A DNA stretch of 64,000 nucleotides, taken from the NCBI GenBank assembly GCA_035610835.1, contig CM069444.1, positions 3,478,875-3,542,874 of the forward strand. The letters are read 5' to 3'. This DNA is from Ophiura sarsii (Eukaryota > Echinodermata > Ophiuroidea > Amphilepidida > Ophiuridae). The position numbers and the translations under genes are program-made. Positions 1-42,000 of this stretch are shown piece after piece (the stretch's first letter is position 1; every line of letters starts with the position of its first letter). The notes beneath the pieces are model-generated. The model was not told the origin of the DNA. It searched no databases and worked only from the letters and a program-made list of their open reading frames with translations.

Positions 1-65
1 TTTTTAACAATAGACGTATATGTTTCGCCTTCAGCATCAGCAGCAACGAATATAGCTGTGAAAGT
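1..65 (-). CDS. Exon C of the next array unit, truncated by the window edge
   Basis: Only the first 65 bases of this exon are inside the window. The acceptor (CT on the plus strand at 66-67) and the start of the reading frame, [16 protein letters not shown], match exon C of every other unit. It follows exon B of unit 1 (306-538) in phase 0. It shows that the array and the gene continue beyond the left edge. Confidence 0.9.
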
Positions 66-3000
66 CTACAAAAAACAACAATATATATATCAACATTTGG
101 ATATTAATTTGACCTAGCCGCAGTATTAATTAGGTACGTTATTTTTTAATGCCTCGCATCATATTTAAGGGATAAAACCGTTTCGACTACAGCTAAAATA
201 ATAATGTTTGCTTTAACCCTTTCGACTACAGCTAAAATACTAATATTGGCTTTCGTTAATCATTTAAATATAAATAAACTGCTAACATAAAATTACTTAA
301 AATACCTCGAGATTATCGTTTGAAGGAACTGAAGTAAAATCCGTTTCTGAATCACTGCGAACTTTCATTGTGAAGGTGACTGGAGTCAGAGGAACCCGTG
401 AGATGAGGACAATCGAATCAACTCTAGCAGGTACCGAAAGTGATACTAGATAAGTTTTGCCATTACCGTCAGAACCTTCTTCAGTAGTTACCACTACTCG
501 CAAATCATCGTTGGATGTCATTGAATCCTCACAAGGCTCTGTAAAATGTTGATATACACAACACATGGTATAATTATATACACGTAAATATTATTTAAAA
601 TCATTATTTGACTTCAACTAGATGTTGATCATATAAACTGAAGAAGTAGAGACCAATATTACTTATATTATAATAAACATGATTTGATTTACCTGTCTGT
701 GTCGTTTCTGTTGTTACAGTTTGTTCAGTTGTTGTTGCAGAAGGTTGCAGTGTTGTTATCGTTGATGTTGTAACTTGTGTCGTCACAACTGCAGCCTGTG
801 TAGGTTCAGTCTTTGCCTGAGTGGTCGTTTCCACAGTCGTTTGTTGAGTAGTAGTAACTAATTGTGAGGAAAACAATGTAACATTCATTTTTTTGAAATA
901 AAACAACCGCATAGCCTTCCGTGAACGTGATTAATTCAAATCCTAGGTTAAGTTTTATTATAATTGTTAGAATTTCTTATTAACAAGCCTCATGTTTTGT
1001 GAGCATTATGGTATTTTCTCTATATGGGTTGTTGAGGTTTTCCTTACTGACGAATAAATTGTTTATTTCGTTATATTGCATTTTACCTACGACGTTATAT
1101 GTTATATAGCTAACATATGATATGATATATGATATGATTGTATTGGCACAAAATCGCGACCCGAAGGCCAAATTACATTGTACAGGAAAGCAAGGAATAC
1201 ATATAAACTACATATCATTTGTTAATATTCTTTGTTGATTTCTTATATGGTATTTACTGACCTTCCTCCTGGCATGATTTCAGCACCAGGGAAAAAATCA
1301 CCGCCTGCTCATCATTAGTATTAGTCGGAGTCACCACGATAAGAACAAACTGAACCTCTTTACCGGAGAAGTCCGGGCTTAGTTTTATTGGATTTCCATC
1401 TTCTAGAGTCTCCAATGGATCACCGATCTATGAAACACGTTCGAAAAAAAAGGCATTAGTATAATTTAAACCCGAACGACCAAAAGGCAATTCGTATAAT
1501 TAAAACCCGCAAAATCGATTTGAAAATTCAAGCTTAACAGGATTATGGACTGTTTTATTTTAAAAGCAATTAATTATTGATAAGAAGTTAACAGAGTTGA
1601 ATTATTGATTAACATGGAAAGTAGCCTACAAAAACCACGATTTATACGTGTCTTAAATCTCGTTCAGTTGTCATCTTTCATCATCAACGATCATTTGGTG
1701 ACAATTTATCGAGTTTGATATGCACTTATGCTAAGAAAAGTCGTTTTTCTAATATAATTTAGTACAATTCAAACTGTATCCTCTACAGACAGTCGCTGAA
1801 GCTAAGATATAAATTTTGGATTCTTAAGGTCCCACAACACCAAATCAGTTCCCTATTGCTTTGTGTGGATTTGGTGGAAATTGGTGGAAACAGTGAAATC
1901 GTGTTAAATGATACCATTCAAGAAAAAGCTAGAGATTTTGGGCCTTATGTGGAGGAAATAACCTAGAAATGCCAAATTATGAAACATTTAGGTACATTTA
2001 CGGCACTTTTTACATTTTCTACGATGTTAAATTTAGACTTATGGTGGAGTCTATCTTAAATTCAAACACTGCCGGGTATTGCCAGAATGCAAATATTATT
2101 TGGTGGTGTGTACTCTTAAACTTGAATCAAAGAGGGTAATTTGGATCTATGCAAAAATCACATATTTGCAAGATATTACAAGGCTAGTGAACCTTTTCGT
2201 TTGGTAGGAATCAATGATATATTTGAAGTGTTATATCCTGCACCCAGACTAATTGTTGTTTGTTCGAAGGAGAGGTTGTAGGGATTTGATACAATAGGAA
2301 ATAATATAAACTCACAGGTTCAAATGTACGTGTCTTGTCATTCTTTGGAGCTTTCAAGATAGCAGTAACAGGCTTGTTGTAGGTAAATTCAATTAAATCA
2401 ACCAAGGCCGGTTCGTCCAATTTGTAAACTATATAAGTTTTTCCCGTGACTGAAATAGAGCTGCTCGTAGTTGGCGTCTGATTCGTAATTTGATTAACAT
2501 TATTCACGGGCGTATTAAAAATGTAGATCTCGACAGGCAGATCTTCACTCATACCTGTAGTTTCATCGCATATACCTGAAATGGTTATAGATGATGGATA
2601 ATTGTTATGGTTTGTTCAGCTCAAAATTGCCAAAGCCTCCTCACAGCAGCGAAGGAATACAGAAGGTTGCGGGCGCGCGTGAAGGCATTACATTAACTGT
2701 GCATCACATGTGTGACGCGTGGTGTGTGGTAATCATCGCGCGCATACCCTTGGATTACTTTTACGCACAAAGAGATAAACACCGAATATTTCTCGCCAAT
2801 TTGGAACTGATTCATCTATAGAAATATATCACTTGGCAATTACTTTGAATTAAAGTTAAGTTGACACGGACAATAATAGAATATAATGTTGTTACTACAT
2901 CAAAGCTCACCTTGTTGCTTCGTGGTTGATGCTACTGTGGTAGTTGTAGCTTTGGTTAGTGCTTGAGGTGTAGTGGATTGCAGCTTGGTGGTGGCAACCG

Positions 3001-6000
3001 TGGTTGTCTCTGCAGAGGTTGTGGTTTCTGACACTGTTGTTGTTTCCAAAGTGGTGGTTAGTTTTTGACAACCTCTCAATTGAACGGTTAAGTTAGATGC
3101 TGATGTCTCTCCTGATACAACAATCTCCAGAGCGCCCACTGGATATGCGAGCTGCTTTTTAACAATAGACGTATATGTTTCGCCTTCAGCATCAGCAGCA
3201 ACGAATATAGCTGTGAAAGTCTACAAAAAACAACAATATATATATCAACATTTGGATATTAATTTGACCTAGCCGCAGTATTAATTAGGTACGTTATTTT
3301 TTAATGCCTCGCATCATATTTAAGGGATAAAACCGTTTCGACTACAGCTAAAATAATAATGTTTGCTTTAACCCTTTCGACTACAGCTAAAATACTAATA
3401 TTGGCTTTCGTTAATCATTTAAATATAAATAAACTGCTAACATAAAATTACTTAAAATACCTCGAGATTGTCGTTTGAAGGAACTGAAGTAAAATCCGTT
3501 TCTGAATCACTGCGAACTTTCATTGTGAAGGTGACTGGAGTCAGAGGAACCCGTGAGATGAGGACAATCGAATCAACTCTAGCAGGTACCGAAAGTGATA
3601 CTAGATAAGTTTTGCCATTACCGTCAGAACCTTCTCCAGTAGTTACCACTACTCGCAAATCATCGTTGGATGTCATTGAATCCTCACAAGGCTCTGTAAA
3701 ATGTTGATATACACAACACATGGTATAATTATATACACGTAAATATTATTTAAAATCATTATTTGACTTCAACTAGATGTTGATCATATAAACTGAAGAA
3801 GTAGAGACCAATATTACTTATATTATAATAAACATGATTTGATTTACCTGTCTGTGTCGTTTCTGTTGTTACAGTTTGTTCAGTTGTTGTTGCAGAAGGT
3901 TGCAGTGTTGTTATCGTTGATGTTGTAACTTGTGTCGTCACAACTGCAGCCTGTGTAGGTTCAGTCTTTGCCTGAGTGGTCGTTTCCACAGTCGTTTGTT
4001 GAGTAGTAGTAACTAATTGTGAGGAAAACAATGTAACATTCATTTTTTTGAAATAAAACAACCGCATAGCCTTCCGTGAACGTGATTAATTCAAATCCTA
4101 GGTTAAGTTTTATTATAATTGTTAGAATTTCTTATTAACAAGCCTCATGTTTTGTGAGCATTATGGTATTTTCTCTATATGGGTTGTTGAGGTTTTCCTT
4201 ACTGACGAATAAATTGTTTATTTCGTTATATTGCATTTTACCTACGACGTTATATGTTATATAGCTAACATATGATATGATATGATATGATATGATTTTA
4301 TTGGCACAAAATCGCGACCCGAAGGCCGAATTACATTGTACAGGAAAGCAAGGAATACATATAAAATACATATCATTTGTTAATATTCTTTGTTGATTTC
4401 TTATATGGTATTTACTGACCTTCCTCCTGGCATGATTTCAGCACCATGGAAATAATCACCGCCTGCTCATCATTAGTATTAGTCGGAGTCACCACGATAA
4501 GAACAAACTGAACCTCTTTACCGGAGAAGTCCGGGCTTAGTTTTATTGGATTTCCATCTTCTAGAGTCTCCAATGGATCACCAATCTATGAAACACGTTC
4601 GAAAAAAAAGGCATTAGTATAATTTAAACCCGAACGACCAAAAGGCAATTCGTATAATTAAAACCCGCAAAATCGATTTGAAAATTCAAGCTTAACAGGA
4701 TTATGGACTGTTTTATTTTAAAAGCAATTAATTATTGATAAGAAGTTAACAGAGTTGAATTATTGATTAACATGGAAAGTAGCCTACAAAAACCACGATT
4801 TATACGTGTCTTAAATCTCGTTCAGTTGTCATCTTTCATCATCAACGATCATTTGGTGACAATTTATCGAGTTTGATATGCACTTATGCTAAGAAAAGTC
4901 GTTTTTCTAATATAATTTAGTACAATTCAAACTGTATCCTCTACAGACAGTCGCTGAAGCTAAGATATAAATTTTGGATTCTTAAGGTCTCACACCACCA
5001 AATCAGTTCCCTATTGCTTTGTGTGGATTTGGCTGAAATTGGTGGAAACAGTGAAATCGTGTTAAATGATACCATTCAAGAAAAAGCTAGAGATTTTGGG
5101 CCTTATGTGGAGGAAATAACCTAGAAATGCCAAATTATGAAACATTTAGGTACATTTACGGCACTTTTTACATTTTCTACGATGTTAAATTTAGACTTAT
5201 GGTGGAGTCTATCTTAAATTCAAACACTGCCGGGTATTGCCAGAATGCAAATATTATTTGGTGGTGTGTACTCTTAAACTTGAATCAAAGAGGGTAATTT
5301 GGATCTATGCAAAAATCACATATTTGCAAGATATTACAAGGCTAGTGAACCTTTTCGTTTGGTAGGAATCAATGATATATTTGAAGTGTTATATCCTGCA
5401 CCCAGACTAATTGTTGTTTGTTCGAAGGAGAGGTTGTAGGGATTTGATACAATAGGAAATAATATAAACTCACAGGTTCAAATGTACGTGTCTTGTCATT
5501 CTTTGGAGCTTTCAAGATAGCAGTAACAGGCTTGTTGTAGGTAAATTCAATTAAATCAACCAAGGCCGGTTCGTCCAATTTGTAAACTATATAAGTTTTT
5601 CCCGTGACTGGAATAGAGCTGCTCGTAGTTGGCGTCTGATTCGTAATTTGATTAACATTATTCACGGGCGTATTAAAAATGTAGATCTCGACAGGCAGAT
5701 CTTCACTCATACCAGTAGTTTCATCGCATATACCTGAAATGGTTATAGATGATGGATAATTGTTATGGTTTGTTCAGCTCAAAATTGCCAAAGCCTCCTC
5801 ACAGCAGCGAAGGAATACAGAAGGTTGCGGGCGCGCGTGAAGGCATTACATTAACTGTGCATCATATGTGTGACGCGTGGTGTGTGGTAATCATCGCGCG
5901 CATACCCTTGGATTACTTTTACGCACAAAGAGATAAACACCGAATATTTCTCGCCAATTTGGAACTGATTCATCTATAGAAATATATCACTTGGCAATTA

Positions 6001-9000
6001 CTTTGAATTAAAGTTAAGTTGACACGGACAATAATAGAATATAATGTTGTTACTACATCAAAGCTCACCTTGTTGCTTCGTGGTTGATGCTACTGTGGTA
6101 GTTGTAGCTTTGGTTAGTGCTTGAGGTGTAGTGGATTGCAGCTTGGTGGTGGCAACCGTGGTTGTCTCTGCAGAGGTTGTGGTTTCTGACACTGTTGTTG
6201 TTTCCAAAGTGGTGGTTAGTTTTTGACAACCTCTCAATTGAACGGTTAAGTTAGATGCTGATGTCTCTCCTGATACAACAATCTCCAGAGCGCCCACTGG
6301 ATATGCGAGCTGCTTTTTAACAATAGACGTATATGTTTCGCCTTCAGCATCAGCAGCAACGAATATAGCTGTGAAAGTCTACAAAAAACAACAATATATA
6401 TATCAACATTTGGATATTAATTTGACCTAGCCGCAGTATTAATTAGGTACGTTATTTTTTAATGCCTCGCATCATATTTAAGGGATAAAACCGTTTCGAC
6501 TACAGCTAAAATAATAATGTTTGCTTTAACCCTTTCGACTACAGCTAAAATACTAATATTGGCTTTCGTTAATCATTTAAATATAAATAAACTGCTAACA
6601 TAAAATTACTTAAAATACCTCGAGATTATCGTTTGAAGGAACTGAAGTAAAATCCGTTTCTGAATCACTGCGAACTTTCATTGTGAAGGTGACTGGAGTC
6701 AGAGGAACCCGTGAGATGAGGACAATCGAATCAACTCTAGCAGGTACCGAAAGTGATACTAGATAAGTTTTGCCATTACCGTCAGAACCTTCTTCAGTAG
6801 TTACCACTACTCGCAAATCATCGTTGGATGTCATTGAATCCTCACAAGGCTCTGTAAAATGTTGATATACACAACACATGGTATAATTATATACACGTAA
6901 ATATTATTTAAAATCATTATTTGACTTCAACTAGATGTTGATCATATAAACTGAAGAAGTAGAGACCAATATTACTTATATTATAATAAACATGATTTGA
7001 TTTACCTGTCTGTGTCGTTTCTGTTGTTACAGTTTGCTCAGTTGTTGTTGCAGAAGGTTGCAGTGTTGTTATCGTTGATGTTGTAACTTGTGTCGTCACA
7101 ACTGCAGCCTGTGTAGGTTCAGTCTTTGCCTGAGTGGTCGTTTCCACAGTCGTTTGTTGAGTAGTAGTAACTAATTGTGAGGAAAACAATGTAACATTCA
7201 TTTTTTTGAAATAAAACAACCGCATAGCCTTCCGTGAACGTGATTAATTCAAATCCTAGGTTAAGTTTTATTATAATTGTTAGAATTTCTTATTAACAAG
7301 CCTCATGTTTTGTGAGCATTATGGTATTTTCTCTATATGGGTTGTTGAGGTTTTCCTTACTGACGAATAAATTGTTTATTTCGTTATATTGCATTTTACC
7401 TACGACGTTATATGTTATATAGCTAACATATGATATGATATATGATATGATTGTATTGGCACAAAATCGCGACCCGAAGGCCGAATTACATTGTACAGGA
7501 AAGCAAGGAATACATATAAACTACATATCATTTGTTAATATTCTTTGTTGATTTCTTATATGGTATTTACTGACCTTCCTCCTGGCATGATTTCAGCACC
7601 AGGGAAATAATCACCGCCTGCTCATCATTAGTATTAGTCGGAGTCACCACGATAAGAACAAACTGAACCTCTTTACCGGAGAAGTCCGGGCTTAGTTTTA
7701 TTGGATTTCCATCTTCTAGAGTCTCCAATGGATCACCGATCTATGAAACACGTTCGAAAAAAAAGGCATTAGTATAATTTAAACCCGAACGACCAAAAGG
7801 CAATTCGTATAATTAAAACCCGCAAAATCGATTTGAAAATTCAAGCTTAACAGGATTATGGACTGTTTTATTTTAAAAGCAATTAATTATTGATAAGAAG
7901 TTAACAGAGTTGAATTATTGATTAACATGGAAAGTAGCCTACAAAAACCACGATTTATACGTGTCTTAAATCTCGTTCAGTTGTCATCTTTCATCATCAA
8001 CGATCATTTGGTGACAATTTATCGAGTTTGATATGCACTTATGCTAAGAAAAGTCGTTTTTCTAATATAATTTAGTACAATTCAAACTGTATCCTCTACA
8101 GACAGTCGCTGAAGCTAAGATATAAATTTTGGATTCTTAAGGTCCCACACCACCAAATCAGTTCCCTATTGCTTTGTGTGGATTTGGTGGAAATTGGTGG
8201 AAACAGTGAAATCGTGTTAAATGATACCATTCAAGAAAAAGCTAGAGATTTTGGGCCTTATGTGGAGGAAATAACCTAGAAATGCCAAATTATGAAACAT
8301 TTAGGTACATTTACGGCACTTTTTACATTTTCTACGATGTTAAATTTAGACTTATGGTGGAGTCTATCTTAAATTCAAACACTGCCGGGTATTGCCAGAA
8401 TGCAAATATTATTTGGTGGTGTGTACTCTTAAACTTGAATCAAAGAGGGTAATTTGGATCTATGCAAAAATCACATATTTGCAAGATATTACAAGGCTAG
8501 TGAACCTTTTCGTTTGGTAGGAATCAATGATATATTTGAAGTGTTATATCCTGCACCCAGACTAATTGTTGTTTGTTCGAAGGAGAGGTTGTAGGGATTT
8601 GATACAATAGGAAATAATATAAACTCACAGGTTCAAATGTACGTGTCTTGTCATTCTTTGGAGCTTTCAAGATAGCAGTAACAGGCTTGTTGTAGGTAAA
8701 TTCAATTAAATCAACCAAGGCCGGTTCGTCCAATTTGTAAACTATATAAGTTTTTCCCGTGACTGGAATAGAGCTGCTCGTAGTTGGCGTCTGATTCGTA
8801 ATTTGATTAACATTATTCACGGGCGTATTAAAAATGTAGATCTCGACAGGCAGATCTTCACTCATACCTGTAGTTTCATCGCATATACCTGAAATGGTTA
8901 TAGATGATGGATAATTGTTATGGTTTGTTCAGCTCAAAATTGCCAAAGCCTCCTCACAGCAGCGAAGGAATACAGAAGGTTGCGGGCGCGCGTGAAGGCA

Positions 9001-12000
9001 TTACATTAACTGTGCATCATATGTGTGACGCGTGGTGTGTGGTAATCATCGCGCGCGTACCCTTGGATTACTTTTACGCACAAAGAGATAAACACCGAAT
9101 ATTTCTCGCCAATTTGGAACTGATTCATCTATAGAAATATATCACTTGGCAATTACTTTGAATTAAAGTTAAGTTGACACGGACAATAATAGAATATAAT
9201 GTTGTTACTACATCAAAGCTCACCTTGTTGCTTCGTGGTTGATGCTACTGTGGTAGTTGTAGCTTTGGTTAGTGCTTGAGGTGTAGTGGATTGCAGCTTG
9301 GTGGTGGCAACCGTGGTTGTCTCTGCAGAGGTTGTGGTTTCTGACACTGTTGTTGTTTCCAAAGTGGTGGTTAGTTTTTGACAACCTCTCAATTGAACGG
9401 TTAAGTTAGATGCTGATGTCTCTCCTGATACAACAATCTCCAGAGCGCCCACTGGATATGCGAGCTGCTTTTTAACAATAGACGTATATGTTTCGCCTTC
9501 AGCATCAGCAGCAACGAATATAGCTGTGAAAGTCTACAAAAAACAACAATATATATATCAACATTTGGATATTAATTTGACCTAGCCGCAGTATTAATTA
9601 GGTACGTTATTTTTTAATGCCTCGCATCATATTTAAGGGATAAAACCGTTTCGACTACAGCTAAAATAATAATGTTTGCTTTAACCCTTTCGACTACAGC
9701 TAAAATACTAATATTGGCTTTCGTTAATCATTTAAATATAAATAAACTGCTAACATAAAATTACTTAAAATACCTCGAGATTGTCGTTTGAAGGAACTGA
9801 AGTAAAATCCGTTTCTGAATCACTGCGAACTTTCATTGTGAAGGTGACTGGAGTCAGAGGAACCCGTGAGATGAGGACAATCGAATCAACTCTAGCAGGT
9901 ACCGAAAGTGATACTAGATAAGTTTTGCCATTACCGTCAGAACCTTCTCCAGTAGTTACCACTACTCGCAAATCATCGTTGGATGTCATTGAATCCTCAC
10001 AAGGCTCTGTAAAATGTTGATATACACAACACATGGTATAATTATATACACGTAAATATTATTTAAAATCATTATTTGACTTCAACTAGATGTTGATCAT
10101 ATAAACTGAAGAAGTAGAGACCAATATTACTTATATTATAATAAACATGATTTGATTTACCTGTCTGTGTCGTTTCTGTTGTTACAGTTTGTTCAGTTGT
10201 TGTTGCAGAAGGTTGCAGTGTTGTTATCGTTGATGTTGTAACTTGTGTCGTCACAACTGCAGCCTGTGTAGGTTCAGTCTTTGCCTGAGTGGTCGTTTCC
10301 ACAGTCGTTTGTTGAGTAGTAGTAACTAATTGTGAGGAAAACAATGTAACATTCATTTTTTTGAAATAAAACAACCGCATAGCCTTCCGTGAACGTGATT
10401 AATTCAAATCCTAGGTTAAGTTTTATTATAATTGTTAGAATTTCTTATTAACAAGCCTCATGTTTTGTGAGCATTATGGTATTTTCTCTATATGGGTTGT
10501 TGAGGTTTTCCTTACTGACGAATAAATTGTTTATTTCGTTATATTGCATTTTACCTACGACGTTATATGTTATGTAGCTAACATATGATATGATATGATA
10601 TGATATGATTTTATTGGCACAAAATCGCGACCCGAAGGCCGAATTACATTGTACAGGAAAGCAAGGAATACATATAAAATACATATCATTTGTTAATATT
10701 CTTTGTTGATTTCTTATATGATATTTACTGACCTTCCTCCTGGCATGATTTCAGCACCATGGAAATAATCACCGCCTGCTCATCATTAGTATTAGTCGGA
10801 GTCACCACGATAAGAACAAACTGAACCTCTTTACCGGAGAAGTCCGGGCTTAGTTTTATTGGATTTCCATCTTCTAGAGTCTCCAATGGATCACCGATCT
10901 ATGAAACACGTTCGAAAAAAAAGGCATTAGTATAATTTAAACCCGAACGACCAAAAGGCAATTCGTATAATTAAAACCCGCAAAATCGATTTGAAAATTC
11001 AAGCTTAACAGGATTATGGACTGTTTTATTTTAAAAGCAATTAATTATTGATAAGAAGTTAACAGAGTTGAAGCAATTAATTATTGATAAGAAGTTAACA
11101 GAGTTGAATTATTGATTAACATGGAAAGTAGCCTACAAAAACCACGATTTATACGTGTCTTAAATCTCGTTCAGTTGTCATCTTTCATCATCAACGATCA
11201 TTTGGTGACAATTTATCGAGTTTGATATGCACTTATGCTAAGAAAAGTCGTTTTTCTAATATAATTTAGTACAATTCAAACTGTATCCTCTACAGACAGT
11301 CGCTGAAGCTAAGATATAAATTTTGGATTCTTAAGGTCTCACACCACCAAATCAGTTCCCTATTGCTTTGTGTGGATTTGGCTGAAATTGGTGGAAACAG
11401 TGAAATCGTGTTAAATGATACCATTCAAGAAAAAGCTAGAGATTTTGGGCCTTATGTGGAGGAAATAACCTAGAAATGCCAAATTATGAAACATTTAGGT
11501 ACATTTACGGCACTTTTTACATTTTCTACGATGTTAAATTTAGACTTATGGTGGAGTCTATCTTAAATTCAAACACTGCCGGGTATTGCCAGAATGCAAA
11601 TATTATTTGGTGGTGTGTACTCTTAAACTTGAATCAAAGAGGGTAATTTGGATCTATGCAAAAATCACATATTTGCAAGATATTACAAGGCTAGTGAACC
11701 TTTTCGTTTGGTAGGAATCAATGATATATTTGAAGTGTTATATCCTGCACCCAGACTAATTGTTGTTTGTTCGAAGGAGAGGTTGTAGGGATTTGATACA
11801 ATAGGAAATAATATAAACTCACAGGTTCAAATGTACGTGTCTTGTCATTCTTTGGAGCTTTCAAGATAGCAGTAACAGGCTTGTTGTAGGTAAATTCAAT
11901 TAAATCAACCAAGGCCGGTTCGTCCAATTTGTAAACTATATAAGTTTTTCCCGTGACTGGAATAGAGCTGCTCGTAGTTGGCGTCTGATTCGTAATTTGA

Positions 12001-15000
12001 TTAACATTATTCACGGGCGTATTAAAAATGTAGATCTCGACAGGCAGATCTTCACTCATACCAGTAGTTTCATCGCATATACCTGAAATGGTTATAGATG
12101 ATGGATAATTGTTATGGTTTGTTCAGCTCAAAATTGCCAAAGCCTCCTCACAGCAGCGAAGGAATACAGAAGGTTGCGGGCGCGCGTGAAGGCATTACAT
12201 TAACTGTGCATCATATGTGTGACGCGTGGTGTGTGGTAATCATCGCGCGCATACCCTTGGATTACCTTTACGCACAAAGAGATAAACACCGAATATTTCT
12301 CGCCAATTTGGAACTGATTCATCTATAGAAATATATCACTTGGCAATTACTTTGAATTAAAGTTAAGTTGACACGGACAATAATAGAATATAATGTTGTT
12401 ACTACATCAAAGCTCACCTTGTTGCTTCGTGGTTGATGCTACTGTGGTAGTTGTAGCTTTGGTTAGTGCTTGAGGTGTAGTGGATTGCAGCTTGGTGGTG
12501 GCAACCGTGGTTGTCTCTGCAGAGGTTGTGGTTTCTGACACTGTTGTTGTTTCCAAAGTGGTGGTTAGTTTTTGACAACCTCTCAATTGAACGGTTAAGT
12601 TAGATGCTGATGTCTCTCCTGATACAACAATCTCCAGAGCGCCCACTGGATATGCGAGCTGCTTTTTAACAATAGACGTATATGTTTCGCCTTCAGCATC
12701 AGCAGCAACGAATATAGCTGTGAAAGTCTACAAAAAACAACAATATATATATCAACATTTGGATATTAATTTGACCTAGCCGCAGTATTAATTAGGTACG
12801 TTATTTTTTAATGCCTCGCATCATATTTAAGGGATAAAACCATTTCGACTACAGCTAAAATAATAATGTTTGCTTTAACCCTTTCGACTACAGCTAAAAT
12901 ACTAATATTGGCTTTCGTTAATCATTTAAATATAAATAAACTGCTAACATAAAATTACTTAAAATACCTCGAGATTATCGTTTGAAGGAACTGAAGTAAA
13001 ATCCGTTTCTGAATCACTGCGAACTTTCATTGTGAAGGTGACTGGAGTCAGAGGAACCCGTGAGATGAGGACAATCGAATCAACTCTAGCAGGTACCGAA
13101 AGTGATACTAGATAAGTTTTGCCATTACCGTCAGAACCTTCTTCAGTAGTTACCACTACTCGCAAATCATCGTTGGATGTCATAGAATCCTCACAAGGCT
13201 CTGTAAAATGTTGATATACACAACACATGGTATAATTATATACACGTAAATATTATTTAAAATCATTATTTGACTTCAACTAGATGTTGATCATATAAAC
13301 TGAAGAAGTAGAGACCAATATTAATTATATTATAATAAACATGATTTGATTTACCTGTCTGTGTCGTTTCTGTTGTTACAGTTTGTTCAGTTGTTGTTGC
13401 AGAAGGTTGCAGTGTTGTTATCGTTGATGTTGTAACTTGTGTCGTCACAACTGCAGCCTGTGTAGGTTCAGTCTTTGCCTGAGTGGTCGTTTCCACAGTC
13501 GTTTGTTGAGTAGTAGTAACTAATTGTGAGGAAAACAATGTAACATTCATTTTTTTGAAATAAAACAACCGCATAGCCTTCCGTGAACGTGATTAATTCA
13601 AATCCTAGGTTAAGTTTTATTATAATTGTTAGAATTTCTTATTAACAAGCCTCATGTTTTGTGAGCATTATGGTATTTTCTCTATATGGGTTGTTGAGGT
13701 TTTCCTTACTGACGAATAAATTGTTTATTTCGTTATATTGCATTTTACCTACGACGTTATATGTTATATAGCTAACATATCATTTGTTGATATTCTTTGT
13801 TGATTTCTTATATGGTATTTACTGACCTTCCTCCTGGCATGATTTCAGCACCATGGAAATAATCACCGCCTGCTCATCATTAGTATTAGTCGGAGTCACC
13901 ACGATAAGAACAAACTGAACCTCTTTACCGGAGAAGTCCGGGCTTAGTTTTATTGGATTTCCATCTTCTAGAGTCTCCAATGGATCACCGATCTATGAAA
14001 CACGTTCGAAAAAAAGGCATTAGTATAATTTAAACCCGAACGACCAAAAGGCAATTCGTATAATTAAAACCCGCAAAATCGATTTGAAAATTCAAGCTTA
14101 ACAGGATTATGGACTGTTTTATTTTAAAAGCAATTAATTATTGATAAGAAGTTAACAGAGTTGAATTATTGATTAACATGGAAAGTAGCCTACAAAAACC
14201 ACGATTTATACGTGTCTTAAATCTCGTTCAGTTGTCATCTTTCATCATCAACGATCATTTGGTGACAATTTATCGAGTTTGATATGCACTTATGCTAAGA
14301 AAAGTCGTTTTTCTAATATAATTTAGTACAATTCAAACTGTATCCTCTACAGACAGTCGCTGAAGCTAAGATATAAATTTTGGATTCTTAAGGTCCCACA
14401 CCACCAAATCAGTTCCCTATTGCTTTGTGTGGATTTGGTGGAAATTGGTGGAAACAGTGAAATCGTGTTAAATGATACCATTCAAGAAAAAGCTAGAGAT
14501 TTTGGGCCTTATGTGGAGGAAATAACCTAGAAATGCCAAATTATGAAACATTTAGGTACATTTACGGCACTTTTTACATTTTCTACGATGTTAAATTTAG
14601 ACTTATGGTGGAGTCTATCTTAAATTCAAACACTGCCGGGTATTGCCAGAATGCAAATATTATTTGGTGGTGTGTACTCTTAAACTTGAATCAAAGAGGG
14701 TAATTTGGATCTATGCAAAAATCACATATTTGCAAGATATTACAAGGCTAGTGAACCTTTTCGTTTGGTAGGAATCAATGATATATTTGAAGTGTTATAT
14801 CCTGCACCCAGACTAATTGTTGTTTGTTCGAAGGAGAGGTTGAAGGGATTTGATACAATAGGAAATAATATAAACTCACAGGTTCAAATGTACGTGTCTT
14901 GTCATTCTTTGGAGCTTTCAAGATAGCAGTAACAGGCTTGTTGTAGGTAAATTCAATTAAATCAACCAAGGCCGGTTCGTCCAATTTGTAAACTATATAA

Positions 15001-30000: not shown

Positions 30001-33000
30001 CAAAAATCACATATTTGCAAGATATTACAAGGCTAGTGAACCTTTTCGTTTGGTAGGAATCAATGATATATTTGAAGTGTTATATCCTGCACCCAGACTA
30101 ATTGTTGTTTGTTCGAAGGAGAGGTTGTAGGGATTTGATACAATAGGAAATAATATCAACTCACAGGTTCAAATGTACGTGTCTTGTCATTCTTTGGAGC
30201 TTTCAAGATAGCAGTAACAGGCTTGTTGTAGGTAAATTCAATTAAATCAACCAAGGCCGGTTCGTCCAATTTGTAAACTATATAAGTTTTTCCCGTGACT
30301 GGAATAGAGCTGCTCGTAGTTGGCGTCTGATTCGTAATTTGATTAACATTATTCACGGGCGTATTAAAAATGTAGATCTCGACAGGCAGATCTTCACTCA
30401 TACCTGTAGTTTCATCGCATATACCTGAAATGGTTATAGATGATGGATAATTGTTATGGTTTGTTCAGCTCAAAATTGCCAAAGCCTCCTCACAGCAGCG
30501 AAGGAATACAGAAGGTTGCGGGCGCGCGTGAAGGCATTACATTAACTGTGCATCATATGTGTGACGCGTGGTGTGTGGTAATCATCGCGCGCGTACCCTT
30601 GGATTACTTTTACGCACAAAGAGATAAACACCGAATATTTCTCGCCAATTTGGAACTGATTCATCTATAGAAATATATCACTTGGCAATTACTTTGAATT
30701 AAAGTTAAGTTGACACGGACAATAATAGAATATAATGTTGTTACTACATCAAAGCTCACCTTGTTGCTTCGTGGTTGATGCTACTGTGGTAGTTGTAGCT
30801 TTGGTTAGTGCTTGAGGTGTAGTGGATTGCAGCTTGGTGGTGGCAACCGTGGTTGTCTCTGCAGAGGTTGTGGTTTCTGACACTGTTGTTGTTTCCAAAG
30901 TGGTGGTTAGTTTTTGACAACCTCTCAATTGAACGGTTAAGTTAGATGCTGATGTCTCTCCTGATACAACAATCTCCAGAGCGCCCACTGGATATGCGAG
31001 CTGCTTTTTAACAATAGACGTATATGTTTCGCCTTCAGCATCAGCAGCAACGAATATAGCTGTGAAAGTCTACAAAAAACAACAATATATAAATCAACAT
31101 TTGGATATTAATTTGACCTAGCCGCAGTATTAATTAGGTACGTTATTTTTTAATGCCTCGCATCATATTTAAGGGATAAAACCGTTTCGACTACAGCTAA
31201 AATAATAATGTTTGCTTTAACCCTTTCGACTACAGCTAAAATACTAATATTGGCTTTCGTTAATCATTTAAATATAAATAAACTGCTAACATAAAATTAC
31301 TTAAAATACCTCGAGATTGTCGTTTGAAGGAACTGAAGTAAAATCCGTTTCTGAATCACTGCGAACTTTCATTGTGAAGGTTACTGGAGTCAGAGGAACC
31401 CGTGAGATGAGGACAATCGAATCAACTCTAGCAGGTACCGAAAGTGATACTAGATAAGTTTTGCCATTGCCGTCAGAACCTTCTTCAGTAGTTACCACTA
31501 CTTGCAAATCATCGTTGGATGTCATTGAATCCTCACAAGGCTCTGTAAAATGTTGATATACACAACACATGGTATAATTATATACACGTAAATATTATTT
31601 AAAATCATTATTTGACTTCAACTAGATGTTGATCATATAAACTGAAGAAGTAGAGACCAATATTACTTATATTATAATAAACATGATTTGATTTACCTGT
31701 CTGTGTCGTTTCTGTTGTTACAGTTTGTTCAGTTGTTGTTGCAGAAGGTTGCAGTGTTGTTATCGTTGATGTTGTAACTTGTGTCGTCACAACTGCAGCC
31801 TGTGTAGGTTCAGTCTTTGCCTGAGTGGTCGTTTCCACAGTCGTTTGTTGAGTAGTAGTAACTAATTGTGAGGAAAACAATGTAACATTCATTTTTTTGA
31901 AATAAAACAACCGCATAGCCTTCCGTGAACGTGATTAATTCAAATCCTAGGTTAAGTTTTATTATAATTGTTAGAATTTCTTATTAACAAGCCTCATGTT
32001 TTGTGAGCATTATGGTATTTTCTCTATATGGGTTGTTGAGGTTTTCCTTACTGACGAATACATTGTTTATTTCGTTATATTGCATTTTACCTACGACGTT
32101 ATATGTTATATAGCTAACATATCATTTGTTGATATTCTTTGTTGATTTCTTATATGGTATTTACTGACCTTCCTCCTGGCATGATTTCAGCACCATGGAA
32201 ATAATCACCGCCTGCTCATCATTAGTATTAGTCGGAGTCACCACGATAAGAACAAACTGAACCTCTTTACCGGAGAAGTCCGGGCTTAGTTTTATTGGAT
32301 TTCCATCTTCTAGAGTCTCCAATGGATCACCGATCTATGAAACACGTTCGAAAAAAAGGCATTAGTATAATTTAAACCCGAACGACCAAAAGGCAATTCG
32401 TATAATTAAAACCCGCAAAATCGATTTGACAATTCAAGCTTAACAGGATTATGGACTGTTTTATTTTAAAAGCAATTAATTATTGATAAGAAGTTAACAG
32501 AGTTGAATTATTGATTAACATGGAAAGTAGCCTACAAAAACCACGATTTATACGTGTCTTAAATCTCGTTCAGTTGTCATCTTTCATCATCAACGATCAT
32601 TTGGTGACAATTTATCGAGTTTGATATGCACTTATGCTAAGAAAAGTCGTTTTTCTAATATAATTTAGTACAATTCAAACTGTATCCTCTACAGACAGTC
32701 GCTGAAGCTAAGATATAAATTTTGGACTCTTAAGGTCCCACACCACCAAATCAGTTCCCTATTGCTTTGTGTGGATTTGGTGGAAATTGGTGGAAACAGT
32801 GAAATCGTGTTAAATGATACCATTCAAGAAAAAGCTAGAGATTTTGGGCCTTATGTGGAGGAAATAACCTAGAAATGCCAAATTATGAAACATTTAGGTA
32901 CATTTACGGCACTTTTTACATTTTCTACGATGTTAAATTTAGACTTATGGTGGAGTCTATCTTAAATTCAAACACTGCCGGGTATTGCCAGAATGCAAAT

Positions 33001-36000
33001 ATTATTTGGTGGTGTGTACTCTTAAACTTGAATCAAAGAGGGTAATTTGGATCTATGCAAAAATCACATATTTGCAAGATATTACAAGGCTAGTGAACCT
33101 TTTCGTTTGGTAGGAATCAATGATATATTTGAAGTGTTATATCCTGCACCCAGACTAATTGTTGTTTGTTCGAAGGAGAGGTTGTAGGGATTTGATACAA
33201 TAGGACATAATATAAACTCACAGGTTCAAATGTACGTGTCTTGTCATTCTTTGGAGCTTTCAAGATAGCAGTAACAGGCTTGTTGTAGGTAAATTCAATT
33301 AAATCAACCAAGGCCGGTTCGTCCAATTTGTAAACTATATAAGTTTTTCCCGTGACTGGAATAGAGCTGCTCGTAGTTGGCGTCTGATTCGTAATTTGAT
33401 TAACATTATTCACGGGCGTATTAAAAATGTAGATCTCGACAGGCAGATCTTCACTCATACCTGTAGTTTCATCGCATATACCTGAAATGGTTATAGATGA
33501 TGGATAATTGTTATGGTTTGTTCAGCTCAAAATTGCCAAAGCCTCCTCACAGCAGCGAAGGAATACAGAAGGTTGCGGGCGCGCGTGAAGGCATTACATT
33601 AACTGTGCATCATATGTGTGACGCGTGGTGTGTGGTAATCATCGCGCGCGTACCCTTGGATTACTTTTACGCACAAAGAGATAAACACCGAATATTTCTC
33701 GCCAATTTGGAACTGATTCATCTATAGAAATATATCACTTGGCAATTACTTTGAATTAAAGTTAAGTTGACACGGACAATAATAGAATATAATGTTGTTA
33801 CTACATCAAAGCTCACCTTGTTGCTTCGTGGTTGATGCTACTGTGGTAGTTGTAGCTTTGGTTAGTGCTTGAGGTGTAGTGGATTGCAGCTTGGTGGTGG
33901 CAACCGTAGTTGTCTCTGCAGAGGTTGTGGTTTCTGACACTGTTGTTGTTTCCAAAGTGGTGGTTAGTTTTTGACAACCTCTCAATTGAACGGTTAAGTT
34001 AGATGCTGATGTCTCTCCTGATACAACAATCTCCAGAGCGCCCACTGGATATGCGAGCTGCTTTTTAACAATAGACGTATATGTTTCGCCTTCAGCATCA
34101 GCAGCAACGAATATAGCTGTGAAAGTCTACAAAAAACAACAATATATATATATCAACATTTGGATATTAATTTGACCTAGCCGCAGTATTAATTAGGTAC
34201 GTTATTTTTTAATGCCTCGCATCATATTTAAGGGATAAAACCGTTTCGACTACAGCTAAAATAATAATGTTTGCTTTAACCCTTTCGACTACAGCTAAAA
34301 TACTAATATTGGCTTTCGTTAATCATTTAAATATAAATAAACTGCTAACATAAAATTACTTAAAATACCTCGAGATTGTCGTTTGAAGGAACTGAAGTAA
34401 AATCCGTTTCTGAATCACTGCGAACTTTCATTGTGAAGGTGACTGGAGTCAGAGGAACCCGTGAGATGAGGACAATCGAATCAACTCTAGCAGGTACCGA
34501 AAGTGATACTAGATAAGTTTTGCCATTACCGTCAGAACCTTCTTCAGTAGTTACCACTACTCGCAAATCATCGTTGGATGTCATTGAATCCTCACAAGGC
34601 TCTGTAAAATGTTGATATACACAACACATGGTATAATTATATACACGTAAATATTATTTAAAATCATTATTTGACTTCAACTAGATGTTGATCATATAAA
34701 CTGAAGAAGTAGAGACCAATATTACTTATATTATAATAAACATGATTTGATTTACCTGTCTGTGTCGTTTCTGTTGTTACAGTTTGTTCAGTTGTTGTTG
34801 CAGAAGGTTGCAGTGTTGTTATCGTTGATGTTGTAACTTGTGTCGTCACAACTGCAGCCTGTGTAGGTTCAGTCTTTGCCTGAGTGGTCGTTTCCACAGT
34901 CGTTTGTTGAGTAGTAGTAACTAATTGTGAGGAAAACAATGTAACATTCATTTTTTTGAAATAAAACAACCGCATAGCCTTCCGTGAACGTGATTAATTC
35001 AAATCCTAGGTTAAGTTTTATTATAATTGTTAGAATTTCTTATTAACAAGCCTCATGTTTTGTGAGCATTATGGTATTTTCTCTATATGGGTTGTTGAGG
35101 TTTTCCTTACTGACGAATACATTGTTTATTTCGTTATATTGCATTTTACCTACGACGTTATATGTTATATAGCTAACATATCATTTGTTGATATTCTTTG
35201 TTGATTTCTTATATGGTATTTACTGACCTTCCTCCTGGCATGATTTCAGCACCATGGAAATAATCACCGCCTGCTCATCATTAGTATTAGTCGGAGTCAC
35301 CACGATAAGAACAAACTGAACCTCTTTACCGGAGAAGTCCGGGCTTAGTTTTATTGGATTTCCATCTTCTAGAGTCTCCAATGGATCACCGATCTATGAA
35401 ACACGTTCGAAAAAAAGGCATTAGTATAATTTAAACCCGAACGACCAAAAGGCAATTCGTATAATTAAAACCCGCAAAATCGATTTGACAATTCAAGCTT
35501 AACAGGATTATGGACTGTTTTATTTTAAAAGCAATTAATTATTGATAAGAAGTTAACAGAGTTGAATTATTGATTAACATGGAAAGTAGCCTACAAAAAC
35601 CACGATTTATACGTGTCTTAAATCTCGTTCAGTTGTCATCTTTCATCATCAACGATCATTTGGTGACAATTTATCGAGTTTGATATGCACTTATGCTAAG
35701 AAAAGTCGTTTTTCTAATATAATTTAGTACAATTCAAACTGTATCCTCTACAGACAGTCGCTGAAGCTAAGATATAAATTTTGGACTCTTAAGGTCCCAC
35801 ACCACCAAATCAGTTCCCTATTGCTTTGTGTGGATTTGGTGGAAATTGGTGGAAACAGTGAAATCGTGTTAAATGATACCATTCAAGAAAAAGCTAGAGA
35901 TTTTGGGCCTTATGTGGAGGAAATAACCTAGAAATGCCAAATTATGAAACATTTAGGTACATTTACGGCACTTTTTACATTTTCTACGATGTTAAATTTA

Positions 36001-39000
36001 GACTTATGGTGGAGTCTATCTTAAATTCAAACACTGCCGGGTATTGCCAGAATGCAAATATTATTTGGTGGTGTGTACTCTTAAACTTGAATCAAAGAGG
36101 GTAATTTGGATCTATGCAAAAATCACATATTTGCAAGATATTACAAGGCTAGTGAACCTTTTCGTTTGGTAGGAATCAATGATATATTTGAAGTGTTATA
36201 TCCTGCACCCAGACTAATTGTTGTTTGTTCGAAGGAGAGGTTGTAGGGATTTGATACAATAGGACATAATATAAACTCACAGGTTCAAATGTACGTGTCT
36301 TGTCATTCTTTGGAGCTTTCAAGATAGCAGTAACAGGCTTGTTGTAGGTAAATTCAATTAAATCAACCAAGGCCGGTTCGTCCAATTTGTAAACTATATA
36401 AGTTTTTCCCGTGACTGGAATAGAGCTGCTCGTAGTTGGCGTCTGATTCGTAATTTGATTAACATTATTCACGGGCGTATTAAAAATGTAGATCTCGACA
36501 GGCAGATCTTCACTCATACCTGTAGTTTCATCGCATATACCTGAAATGGTTATAGATGATGGATAATTGTTATGGTTTGTTCAGCTCAAAATTGCCAAAG
36601 CCTCCTCACAGCAGCGAAGGAATACAGAAGGTTGCGGGCGCGCGTGAAGGCATTACATTAACTGTGCATCATATGTGTGACGCGTGGTGTGTGGTAATCA
36701 TCGCGCGCGTACCCTTGGATTACTTTTACGCACAAAGAGATAAACACCGAATATTTCTCGCCAATTTGGAACTGATTCATCTATAGAAATATATCACTTG
36801 GCAATTACTTTGAATTAAAGTTAAGTTGACACGGACAATAATAGAATATAATGTTGTTACTACATCAAAGCTCACCTTGTTGCTTCGTGGTTGATGCTAC
36901 TGTGGTAGTTGTAGCTTTGGTTAGTGCTTGAGGTGTAGTGGATTGCAGCTTGGTGGTGGCAACCGTGGTTGTCTCTGCAGAGGTTGTGGTTTCTGACACT
37001 GTTGTTGTTTCCAAAGTGGTGGTTAGTTTTTGACAACCTCTCAATTGAACGGTTAAGTTAGATGCTGATGTCTCTCCTGATACAACAATCTCCAGAGCGC
37101 CCACTGGATATGCGAGCTGCTTTTTAACAATAGACGTATATGTTTCGCCTTCAGCATCAGCAGCAACGAATATAGCTGTGAAAGTCTACAAAAAACAACA
37201 ATATATATATATCAACATTTGGATATTAATTTGACCTAGCCGCAGTATTAATTAGGTACGTTATTTTTTAATGCCTCGCATCATATTTAAGGGATAAAAC
37301 CGTTTCGACTACAGCTAAAATAATACTGTTTGCTTTAACCCTTTCGACTACAGCTAAAATACTAATATTGGCTTTCGTTAATCATTTAAATATAAATAAA
37401 CTGCTAACATAAAATTACTTAAAATACCTCGAGATTGTCGTTTGAAGGAACTGAAGTAAAATCCGTTTCTGAATCACTGCGAACTTTCATTGTGAAGGTG
37501 ACTGGAGTCAGAGGAACCCGTGAGATGAGGACAATCGAATCAACTCTAGCAGGTACCGAAAGTGATACTAGATAAGTTTTGCCATTACCGTCAGAACCTT
37601 CTTCAGTAGTTACCACTACTCGCAAATCATCGTTGGATGTCATTGAATCCTCACAAGGCTCTGTAAAATGTTGATATACACAACACATGGTATAATTATA
37701 TACACGTAAATATTATTTAAAATCATTATTTGACTTCAACTAGATGTTGATCATATAAACTGAAGAAGTAGAGACCAATATTACTTATATTATAATAAAC
37801 ATGATTTGATTTACCTGTCTGTGTCGTTTCTGTTGTTACAGTTTGTTCAGTTGTTGTTGCAGAAGGTTGCAGTGTTGTTATCGTTGATGTTGTAACTTGT
37901 GTCGTCACAACTGCAGCCTGTGTAGGTTCAGTCTTTGCCTGAGTGGTCGTTTCCACAGTCGTTTGTTGAGTAGTAGTAACTAATTGTGAGGAAAACAATG
38001 TAACATTCATTTTTTTGAAATAAAACAACCGCATAGCCTTCCGTGAACGTGATTAATTCAAATCCTAGGTTAAGTTTTATTATAATTGTTAGAATTTCTT
38101 ATTAACAAGCCTCATGTTTTGTGAGCATTATGGTATTTTCTCTATATGGGTTGTTGAGGTTTTCCTTACTGACGAATACATTGTTTATTTCGTTATATTG
38201 CATTTTACCTACGACGTTATATGTTATATAGCTAACATATCATTTGTTGATATTCTTTGTTGATTTCTTATATGGTATTTACTGACCTTCCTCCTGGCAT
38301 GATTTCAGCACCATGGAAATAATCACCGCCTGCTCATCATTAGTATTAGTCGGAGTCACCACGATAAGAACAAACTGAACCTCTTTACCGGAGAAGTCCG
38401 GGCTTAGTTTTATTGGATTTCCATCTTCTAGAGTCTCCAATGGATCACCGATCTATGAAACACGTTCGAAAAAAAGGCATTAGTATAATTTAAACCCGAA
38501 CGACCAGAAGGCAATTCGTATAATTAAAACCCGCAAAATCGATTTGACAATTCAAGCTTAACAGGATTATGGACTGTTTTATTTTAAAAGCAATTAATTA
38601 TTGATAAGAAGTTAACAGAGTTGAATTATTGATTAACATGGAAAGTAGCCTACAAAAACCACGATTTATACGTGTCTTAAATCTCGTTCAGTTATCATCT
38701 TTCATCATCAACGATCATTTGGTGACAATTTATCGAGTTTGATATGCACTTATGCTAAGAAAAGTCGTTTTTCTAATATAATTTAGTACAATTCAAACTG
38801 TATCCTCTACAGACAGTCGCTGAAGCTAAGATATAAATTTTGGATTCTTAAGGTCCCACACCACCAAATCAGTTCCCTATTGCTTTGTGTGGATTTGGTG
38901 GAAATTGGTGGAAACAGTGAAATCGTGTTAAATGATACCATTCAAGAAAAAGCTAGAGATTTTGGGCCTTATGTGGAGGAAATAACCTAGAAATGCCAAA

Positions 39001-42000
39001 TTATGAAACATTTAGGTACATTTACGGCACTTTTTACATTTTCTACGATGTTAAATTTAGACTTATGGTGGAGTCTATCTTAAATTCAAACACTGCCGGG
39101 TATTGCCAGAATGCAAATATTATTTGGTGGTGTGTACTCTTAAACTTGAATCAAAGAGGGTAATTTGGATCTATGCAAAAATCACATATTTGCAAGATAT
39201 TACAAGGCTAGTGAACCTTTTCGTTTGGTAGGAATCAATGATATATTTGAAGTGTTATATCCTGCACCCAGACTAATTGTTGTTTGTTCGAAGGAGAGGT
39301 TGTAGGGATTTGATACAATAGGAAATAATATAAACTCACAGGTTCAAATGTACGTGTCTTGTCATTCTTTGGAGCTTTCAAGATAGCAGTAACAGGCTTG
39401 TTGTAGGTAAATTCAATTAAATCAACCAAGGCCGGTTCGTCCAATTTGTAAACTATATAAGTTTTTCCCGTGACTGGAATAGAGCTGCTCGTAGTTGGCG
39501 TCTGATTCGTAATTTGATTAACATTATTCACGGGCGTATTAAAAATGTAGATCTCGACAGGCAGATCTTCACTCATACCTGTAGTTTCATCGCATATACC
39601 TGAAATGGTTATAGATGATGGATAATTGTTATGGTTTGTTCAGCTCAAAATTGCCAAAGCCTCCTCACAGCAGCGAAGGATTACAGAAGGTTGCGGGCGC
39701 GCGTGAAGGCATTACATTAACTGTGCATCATATGTGTGACGCGTGGTGTGTGGTAATCATCGCGCGCGTACCCTTGGATTACTTTTACGCACAAAGAGAT
39801 AAACACCGAATATTTCTCGCCAATTTGGAACTGATTCATCTATAGAAATATATCACTTGGCAATTACTTTGAATTAAAGTTAAGTTGACACGGACAATAA
39901 TAGAATATAATGTTGTTACTACATCAAAGCTCACCTTGTTGCTTCGTGGTTGATGCTACTGTGGTAGTTGTAGCTTTGGTTAGTGCTTGAGGTGTAGTGG
40001 ATTGCAGCTTGGTGGTGGCAACCGTGGTTGTCTCTGCAGAGGTTGTGGTTTCTGACACTGTTGTTGTTTCCAAAGTGGTGGTTAGTTTTTGACAACCTCT
40101 CAATTGAACGGTTAAGTTAGATGCTGATGTCTCTCCTGATACAACAATCTCCAGAGCGCCCACTGGATATGCGAGCTGCTTTTTAACAATAGACGTATAT
40201 GTTTCGCCTTCAGCATCAGCAGCAACGAATATAGCTGTGAAAGTCTACAAAAAACAACAAAATATATATCAACATTTGGATATTAATTTGACCTAGCCGC
40301 AGTATTAATTAGGTACGTTATTTTTTAATGCCTCGCATCATATTTAAGGGATAAAACCGTTTCGACTACAGCTAAAATAATAATGTTTGCTTTAACCCTT
40401 TCGACTACAGCTAAAATACTAATATTGGCTTTCGTTAATCATTTAAATATAAATAAACTGCTAACATAAAATTACTTAAAATACCTCGAGATTGTCGTTT
40501 GAAGGAACTGAAGTAAAATCCGTTTCTGAATCACTGCGAACTTTCATTGTGAAGGTGACTGGAGTCAGAGGAACCCGTGAGATGAGGACAATCGAATCAA
40601 CTCTAGCAGGTACCGAAAGTGATACTAGATAAGTGTTGCCATTACCGTCAGAACCTTCTTCAGTAGTTACCACTACTCGCAAATCATCGTTGGATGTCAT
40701 TGAATCCTCACAAGGCTCTGTAAAATGTTGATATATACAAAACATGGTATAATCTTATACACACAAACATTATATAAATTCATTATTTAAATTCATTATA
40801 GATGTTGATCATAGAAATTGAAGAAGTAGCGACCAATATGACTTATATTATAATATATATGATTTGATTTACCAGCCTGCGTCGTTTCTGTTGTTACAGT
40901 TTGTTCAGTTGTTGTTGCAGAAGGTTGCAGTGTTGTTATCGTTGATGTTGTAACTTGTGTCGTCACAACTGCAGCCTGTGTAGGTTCAGTCTGGGTCTGA
41001 GTGGTCGTTTCCACAGTCGTTTGTTGAGTAGTAGTCACTACATGGGAGGAAAACATTGAAAGGAATTATATTCGTGTTATTTTTTTATTTTTTATTGTTT
41101 ATTTCTATCATAATTTTCACATTTCACATAGTTTCATCATGTTTACATTGCATATCATATACATGTATAACACATTTTCATATGCTTTTCAGCATTTTTA
41201 TATATTTATATGCTTTTCGGCATAATTTTCACATTTTATGTATAGCACATTTTCATATACTAGTATATTTTCATATGCTTTTCAGCATGTTTACATTTCA
41301 TATCATGTATAGCACATTTTCATATACTAGTACATTTTCATATGCTTTTCAGCATGTTTAAATATGTTTTTCACATTTCAATTACATGTATAACACATTT
41401 TCATGTGTTTTTCATGTTTACATTGCATATCATTACATAACACATTTTTATATGCTTTTCGGCATGTTTACATTGCATACATGTTTAGCACATTTTCTTT
41501 TCAGCATTTTTATATTTTTATATGCTTTTCGGCATGTTTACATTCATAATTTCCATAATTTCATATCATGTATAACATTCACATATGCTTTTCATCATGT
41601 TTACACATTTTCATATGCTTTTCAGCATGTTTATACATTTTTATGCTTTTCAGCACGTTTACACATTTTCGGCATGTTTACATTCATGTTCACATTTCAA
41701 TAACACATTTTCATGTGCTTTTCGTGTTTACATTGGATATCATTACATAACACATTTTTATATGCTTTTCGGCATGTTTACATGTATAACACAGGTTATT
41801 ATTACATATGCATATTCATAGTATTACATAAACCATAATTGTTCAATATTATATACATCATGTATCCAGTTTATTTGTATATAAACTCATATTTAATTTT
41901 ATTATAAGTTTTACATCAAATCATGTTTATAATATTTAATTTGAACCAATATACATGTGGATTCATACAAATATCTTTGGTATGCCGGTATACATAGACA

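What the first reader, a model, noticed from the sequence alone, without database searches (positions are those of the whole stretch)
1..41057. A gene grows by frame-neutral duplication of a whole five-exon genomic block, at least 13 times
Each 3.06-3.19 kb unit adds exactly 1134 coding nt (378 codons) with phase 1 at both ends of the block, so copy number can change by unequal crossing-over with no damage to the protein. The 13 full modules give about 4,900 residues, and the array is still open at the left edge. Most amplified mucins repeat within a single exon; here exons and introns are duplicated together as a 3 kb unit.
Basis: partly seen in the sequence, partly recalled or inferred. Interest (0 to 1): 0.9.

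Follow-up and report, generated by a model that had tools for sequence, protein, structure and literature searches.

The report
Giant mucin built from repeated exon blocks
An animal gene for a huge, probably sugar-coated secreted protein contains dozens of near-identical copies of a 3,000-base block of five coding pieces, each copy adding 378 amino acids; one human mucin and one human blood protein are built in a similar way.

Summary
On the minus strand the window holds 13 complete five-exon units (165+233+310+260+166 = 1134 nt, phase 1 at both ends) and part of a 14th. The window's own genome (1.57 Gb, species not identified) has 55 unit starts, all at this locus: 40 units, a 35-kb interruption, then D-E, 14 units and A-B-C. 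All 54 complete units keep 1134 nt, GT-AG sites and an open frame. All 47 distinct internal gap runs in their alignment lie in introns; dN/dS between the arrays is 0.52. Each unit holds two Thr-rich linkers and two related ~130-residue domains, probably diverged F5/8C domains: partial similarity links, and the same 1-0-1 exon layout as a true F5/8C domain upstream; no Pfam cut-off is met. Neighbour similarity and identical dimers fit unequal crossing-over. Human MUC16 (five exons per repeat) and LPA KIV-2 are precedents, so this is a large new variant. Transcription and copy-number variation were not tested.

The parts
50628..52058 (-). Pro/Thr/Ser-rich mucin exon, 1431 nt, phase 1-1; its end resembles in protein the end of a PTS exon just before array 2
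   Evidence: ORF; ends; resemblance seen by eye
50169..50473 (-). First exon of an F5/8C domain (305 nt, phase 1-0)
   Evidence: spliced domain PF00754 E 3.4e-18; phases
47189..47321 (-). Second exon of that F5/8C domain (133 nt, phase 0-1); found by a targeted pattern search that gave 4 candidates, all this exon with alternative ends
38287..41037 (-). Unit 1 (5'-most, most divergent of array 1): A 41037-40873, B 40717-40485, C 40244-39935, D 39599-39340, E 38452-38287
35228..37979 (-). Unit 2, exons A-E
32169..34920 (-). Unit 3, exons A-E
29112..31861 (-). Unit 4, exons A-E
26054..28804 (-). Unit 5, exons A-E
22997..25746 (-). Unit 6, exons A-E
19940..22689 (-). Unit 7, exons A-E
16884..19632 (-). 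Unit 8, exons A-E
13827..16576 (-). Unit 9, exons A-E
10733..13519 (-). Unit 10, exons A-E; units 10-13 carry about 100 nt more in the E-A intron than units 1-9, and unit 10 also 36 nt more in the D-E intron
7575..10325 (-). Unit 11, exons A-E
4420..7170 (-). Unit 12, exons A-E; nearest is unit 14 (2 differences), then unit 10 (8)
1262..4012 (-). Unit 13, exons A-E; nearest is unit 11 (6 differences)
1..857 (-). Unit 14, cut by the window edge (A and B complete; C begins at 65); complete in the genome
59724..59921 (-). ORF with an LDL-receptor class A domain upstream, same orientation (link to this gene assumed)
   Evidence: PF00057 E 9.7e-11
61861..62046 (-). VWC-like ORF, under the Pfam cut-off (link to this gene assumed)
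   Evidence: PF00093 25.0 bits against 27.6

Best explanation
A mucin-like giant gene. Its repeating block is [Thr-rich exon A] + [domain BC] + [Thr-rich tail of C] + [domain DE]; A, BC and DE each start and end in intron phase 1 (shown in sequence). A founding duplication joined introns of the same phase, so the block could repeat in frame (inferred). Unequal crossing-over and conversion between copies then raised the number to 40 units in one array and 14 in a second and keep the units alike (supported by the pattern of variation, not observed). The product would be a secreted, extended protein alternating O-glycosylated stretches with small lectin-like domains, probably diverged F5/8C: a gel, mucus or adhesive scaffold whose length is set by unit number (function inferred from composition and neighbouring domains).
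For: 54 of 54 complete units keep 1134 nt, AG/GT at all ten sites and an open frame; the copies are near-identical, so this is not 54 independent observations. 47 of 47 distinct internal gap runs are intronic. Array consensuses: dN/dS 0.52 (dS 0.051, dN 0.026); pN/pS 0.44 (array 1, units 2-40) and 0.61 (array 2); 18 of 36 differences at codon position 3. Divergence 0.2-0.7% within arrays (unit 1 apart) against 3.3-5.7% between them; unit 1 is 0.8-0.9% (exon) and 1.4-1.5% (intron) from the rest of array 1. Neighbour similarity: array 1 (units 2-40) Mantel r 0.24, reached by 1 of 5000 permutations; array 2 r 0.28, 87 of 5000; odd-even parity in array 2 r 0.22, 70 of 5000. Four-gamete failures 25 of 741 and 26 of 325 site pairs. 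No base differences between units 48 and 50, 49 and 51, 17 and 18. PTS exon, two F5/8C exons and unit 1 join in one open frame of 3003 nt. Thr is 81 of 378 residues per unit. F5/8C, LDLa, TIL and VWC matches in the same orientation.
Against: No transcript or protein was seen. The gap runs are not all independent, so the chance figure printed (6e-10) is too strong. A dN/dS of 0.52 is mild constraint. The unit domains match no Pfam family at its cut-off; the best sub-threshold match of BC (array 2 version) is Glyco_hydro_5_C, 17.6 bits against 22, not F5/8C. hhalign on shallow alignments gave no confident link: BC or DE to type 2 probability under 2%, BC to DE 10%. Domain-wise, BC against the upstream F5/8C (z 0.27) and DE against type 2 (z 0.44) show nothing; exon-wise, C and E against the type-2 second exon (z 2.3, 0.8) are no better than cross controls (z 1.4-2.6). 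Start and end of the gene were not reached.
Confidence: 0.82

Rival explanations
1. The two arrays belong to two tandem paralogous genes (40 and 14 units), not one.
For: The interruption holds cysteine-rich ORFs, among them one TIL match and one VWC match over the cut-off, and a PTS exon whose end resembles the one before array 1 (by eye). Divergence between arrays is roughly ten times that within them.
Against: Three Thr-rich exons follow array 1, each phase 1-1 as I read their splice sites by eye, so the frame of exon E can run on; the PTS exon before array 2 ends in phase 1 and joins exon D in frame. blastn gave no match of the PTS or F5/8C exons in the interruption. I located no start or stop of a gene there, but ran no gene finder.
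Confidence: 0.45
2. The copy number is an assembly artefact: a few real units were over-expanded.
For: MUC16 is a warning: about 60 repeats in older models against 19 by long reads (PMC10829539, passages). The 54 units include three exact repeats of others (51 distinct sequences).
Against: 51 distinct DNA sequences among 54 units, with ordered structure (neighbour similarity, dimers, divergent ends, different unit lengths in the two arrays). No N in the 263,999 bases.
Confidence: 0.08
3. Noncoding satellite or decayed array with chance open frames.
For: Introns are about as alike as exons; retrotransposon ORFs lie between the F5/8C exons and unit 1.
Against: No exonic gap run among 54 copies against 47 intronic; excess of third-position changes; in-frame join to a Pfam-recognised domain upstream.
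Confidence: 0.04

Closest known systems
MUC16 (CA125) tandem-repeat region, human
   Same: Mucin; each repeat is encoded by five exons; tens of repeats in older models, 19 by long reads; each has a folded domain plus a P/S/T-rich linker (PMC3431878 and PMC10829539, passages)
   Different: Repeat is 156 residues, about 1.9 kb, with one SEA domain; here 378 residues in about 3.1-3.3 kb, two non-SEA domains, two Thr-rich linkers, two arrays, copies within an array about 99.5% identical
LPA kringle IV type 2 repeat, human
   Same: Multi-exon block (5.6 kb, two exons of 160 and 182 bp) repeated in the coding region, 1 to more than 40 copies per allele (PMC6314250, passages)
   Different: Kringle domain, one domain per block, no mucin linkers; its variation among people is measured, here none is
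Extracellular proteins with TIL, VWC, LDLa and F5/8C domains, such as SCO-spondin (recalled, from no call) and sea star footprint proteins (PMC9382459, passages)
   Same: Upstream region carries F5/8C, LDLa, TIL and VWC-like modules
   Different: Footprint proteins Sfp1 and Sfp2 have VWD-C8-TIL; I found no convincing VWD signature here by pattern. The passages read mention no multi-exon array

Membership tests
MUC16 / SEA mucins | SEA domain in each repeat | tested here: not met
   Pfam scan of the full unit (E up to 1) and of BC and DE (E up to 10) listed no SEA family
MUC16 / SEA mucins | Five exons per tandem repeat | tested here: met
   comparison PMC3431878
Mucins (general) | Ser/Thr/Pro-rich stretches | tested here: met
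   26 Thr of 55 residues in exon A, 23 Thr of 51 in the second linker; PTS exon 50628-52058
Mucins (general) | Dense O-glycosylation of the product | not testable with these tools
   needs the protein
Gel-forming mucins | VWD domains | tested here: inconclusive
   Patterns only, over 303,999 bases: none (arrays and short frames left out); 16 loose matches, of which 14 are on the plus strand inside array 2 and 2 on the minus strand have no VWD-like context as I judge. Gene ends not reached, no VWD profile run over the whole stretch
F5/8C (discoidin) domain, for BC and DE | Match to PF00754 at its cut-off | tested here: not met
   the upstream domain and the downstream type-2 domain do match
F5/8C (discoidin) domain, for BC and DE | Similarity and gene structure shared with F5/8C domains of the same gene | tested here: inconclusive
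   BC-DE z 4.3, BC-type 2 z 4.3, DE-upstream z 3.1, type 2-upstream z 4.8, but BC-upstream z 0.27 and DE-type 2 z 0.44; all four have 1-0-1 exons
Multi-exon coding VNTR (LPA KIV-2 kind) | Copy number varies among individuals | not testable with these tools
   one assembly only

The most novel reading that the evidence does not exclude
A single transcript joins both arrays and the flanking modules, giving one of the longest animal proteins (20,412 residues from the 54 complete units alone), whose length differs among individuals in 378-residue steps and tunes a mucus or adhesive.
Probability: 0.35. Interest if true: 0.72.

Novelty: new variant of a known kind. Interest (0 to 1): 0.52.

Why it matters
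54 copies of a five-exon coding block, resolved with their introns, are a natural record of how a modular protein lengthens: exons and introns of the same copies can be compared, so exchange and selection can be told apart. The unit domain meets no Pfam cut-off and seems to be a diverged discoidin domain amplified as a pair. The locus could serve as a coding copy-number system to set beside LPA and MUC16.

Tried and rejected
Homologue searches: the full unit gave nothing at E 10, but only the 8000 candidates sharing most words were scored, probably Thr-rich ones, so this miss is weak. The BC domain alone gave 1 hit among 14 candidates, nearly identical to the window's exon B, source not shown; candidates were limited by length, so long annotated proteins could not appear. 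PDB sequence searches: 0 hits for DE; 2 weak hits of unrelated name for the type-2 alignment. Rfam: 0 matches.

Organism: I suspected Amphiura filiformis from its 1.57-Gb genome (PMC11310086, passages). Rejected: an Amphiura retrotransposon protein matches at 59-60% at best among 62 of 41,548 candidates scored; that record's contig length is not among C1-C19, which are 19 chromosome-size contigs against 20 in the paper. COX1: 0 matches. HSP70: 75 matches listed, but no locus was cut out.

Literature on similar arrays: only listings were seen for (12 of 52 papers listed; 0 papers; 2 papers); none of the listed titles is about such an array, and I do not claim that it is absent from print.

Full report
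Observation. In the gene's direction (minus strand) the window carries 13 complete units and part of a 14th. In each complete unit the exons are A 165, B 233, C 310, D 260 and E 166 nt, 1134 nt in all, with AG/GT at every site and no stop. Exon A is phase 1-1; B-C and D-E are each 1-0-1, so A, BC, DE and the whole block could each be inserted or lost in frame. Unit lengths are 3056-3194 nt, as reported.

Beyond the window. The window is C4:3478875-3542874 of a 1.57-Gb assembly. I fetched neighbouring sequence. Array 1 has 40 units (C4:3519911 to 3395121). After about 35 kb, array 2 begins with D-E alone, has 14 full units and ends with A-B-C and a truncated D. 54 of 54 complete units keep the exon lengths and an open frame, in 31 protein versions and 51 DNA versions. 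Since the copies are near-identical, these are not independent observations. A genome-wide protein search with exon B found 55 matches, all here (56 of 56 candidates scored).

Coding status. In the alignment of the 54 complete units, 47 distinct internal gap runs were counted, all intronic; some share simple-repeat sites and are not independent. The array consensuses differ by 14 synonymous and 22 nonsynonymous changes, dS 0.051, dN 0.026, ratio 0.52; pN/pS within arrays is 0.44 (array 1, units 2-40) and 0.61 (array 2). 18 of the 36 differences fall at codon position 3. This is mild but consistent constraint.

How it spreads. Within arrays (unit 1 apart) exons differ by 0.2-0.35% and introns by 0.3-0.7%; between arrays by 3.3-3.5% and 3.3-5.7%. 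Introns are homogenised along with exons. Near neighbours are more alike than distant units, clearly in array 1 (1 of 5000 permutations) and weakly in array 2 (87 of 5000; odd-even parity 70 of 5000). Units 10, 12 and 14 are close to each other, the nearest of unit 13 is unit 11, and no base differs between 48 and 50, 49 and 51, 17 and 18. A few site pairs fail the four-gamete test (25 of 741; 26 of 325), as exchange between units would cause, although repeated mutation can do the same. Unit 1, at the edge, is the most divergent of array 1. This is the usual picture of unequal crossing-over with conversion; no event was observed.

A correction to the finding. In an array of alike units, homologous unequal exchange adds or removes whole units wherever it occurs, and frame is kept because 1134 is divisible by 3. 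Equal phases at the block ends matter for the founding event and for non-homologous joints. Array 2 shows such joints: it starts with D-E and ends with A-B-C, both of which keep phase 1 at their ends.

The protein. Upstream of unit 1, a 1431-nt PTS exon (50628-52058) and the two exons of an F5/8C domain (PF00754 E 3.4e-18; second exon found by a targeted pattern search) join unit 1 in one open frame of 3003 nt. Farther upstream lie ORFs with LDLa and TIL matches and VWC-like ones. Of the 10 cysteine-rich ORFs scanned, from both sides of array 1, 4 matched VWC at E up to 0.1 and 1 of them reached the cut-off; 3 gave no match at all. Downstream of array 2 are a type-2 F5/8C module (PF00754 E 2.8e-8), a further Cys-bounded domain without Pfam match, and Cys-rich plus Thr/Ala/Pro-rich blocks. 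The unit's own domains BC and DE miss every Pfam cut-off; the best sub-threshold match is Glyco_hydro_5_C for the array-2 version of BC (17.6 bits against 22). They resemble each other (BLASTP E 1e-5 in a two-sequence comparison; z 4.3). BC resembles the type-2 domain (z 4.3) and DE the upstream F5/8C (z 3.1), while BC-upstream F5/8C and DE-type 2 show nothing. Exon by exon, B carries the signal; C and E do not exceed cross controls. All four domains share the 1-0-1 layout. I read BC and DE as diverged F5/8C domains: likely, not proven; hhalign on shallow alignments did not support it.

One gene or two. Three Thr-rich exons after array 1 and the PTS exon before array 2 are compatible with one continuing frame, their splice sites read by eye. 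The cysteine-rich ORFs and second PTS exon between the arrays could also be the front of a tandem paralogue. I put the single-gene reading at a little over one half.

Known kind. MUC16 repeats are encoded by five exons each, 156 residues in about 1.9 kb (PMC3431878, passages); its count fell from about 60 to 19 with long reads (PMC10829539, passages), a caution for any count. LPA KIV-2 is a 5.6-kb two-exon block in 1 to more than 40 copies (PMC6314250, passages). The mechanism is therefore not new; the unit, its domains, the scale and the two-array layout are what differ.

Noticed in passing
window 42785-46493 (-): Reverse-transcriptase-like ORFs of LINE type lie in the long intron between the F5/8C exons and unit 1. 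One (43122-44414) was searched: 7987 of 8000 scored candidates at E up to 1e-10, among the few named ones cnidarian and brittle-star proteins.
   Followed up: partly
window 50933-51294 and 51433-51650: The PTS exon has its own internal repeats of 138 and 108 bp (46 and 36 codons), also frame-neutral.
   Followed up: no
L031 and L032 (about C4:3266144-3277017): Long minisatellite whose minus strand reads open for 1709 and 1359 codons (repeat like ELTVRLITIKVPNK); probably not coding.
   Followed up: no
L055 (C4:3248876-3258875) and L032: Repeated modules of a short Cys-rich domain followed by long Thr/Ala/Pro/Asp-rich stretches, same orientation.
   Followed up: no
L026-L028: Downstream of array 2, type-2 and type-3 domains occur three times each, with Thr-rich exons between them.
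   Followed up: partly
protein P0121: The only database match to the BC domain comes from two contigs of at most 3094 bases, about one unit long, as might be if short-read assembly collapses the array; source not shown.
   Followed up: no
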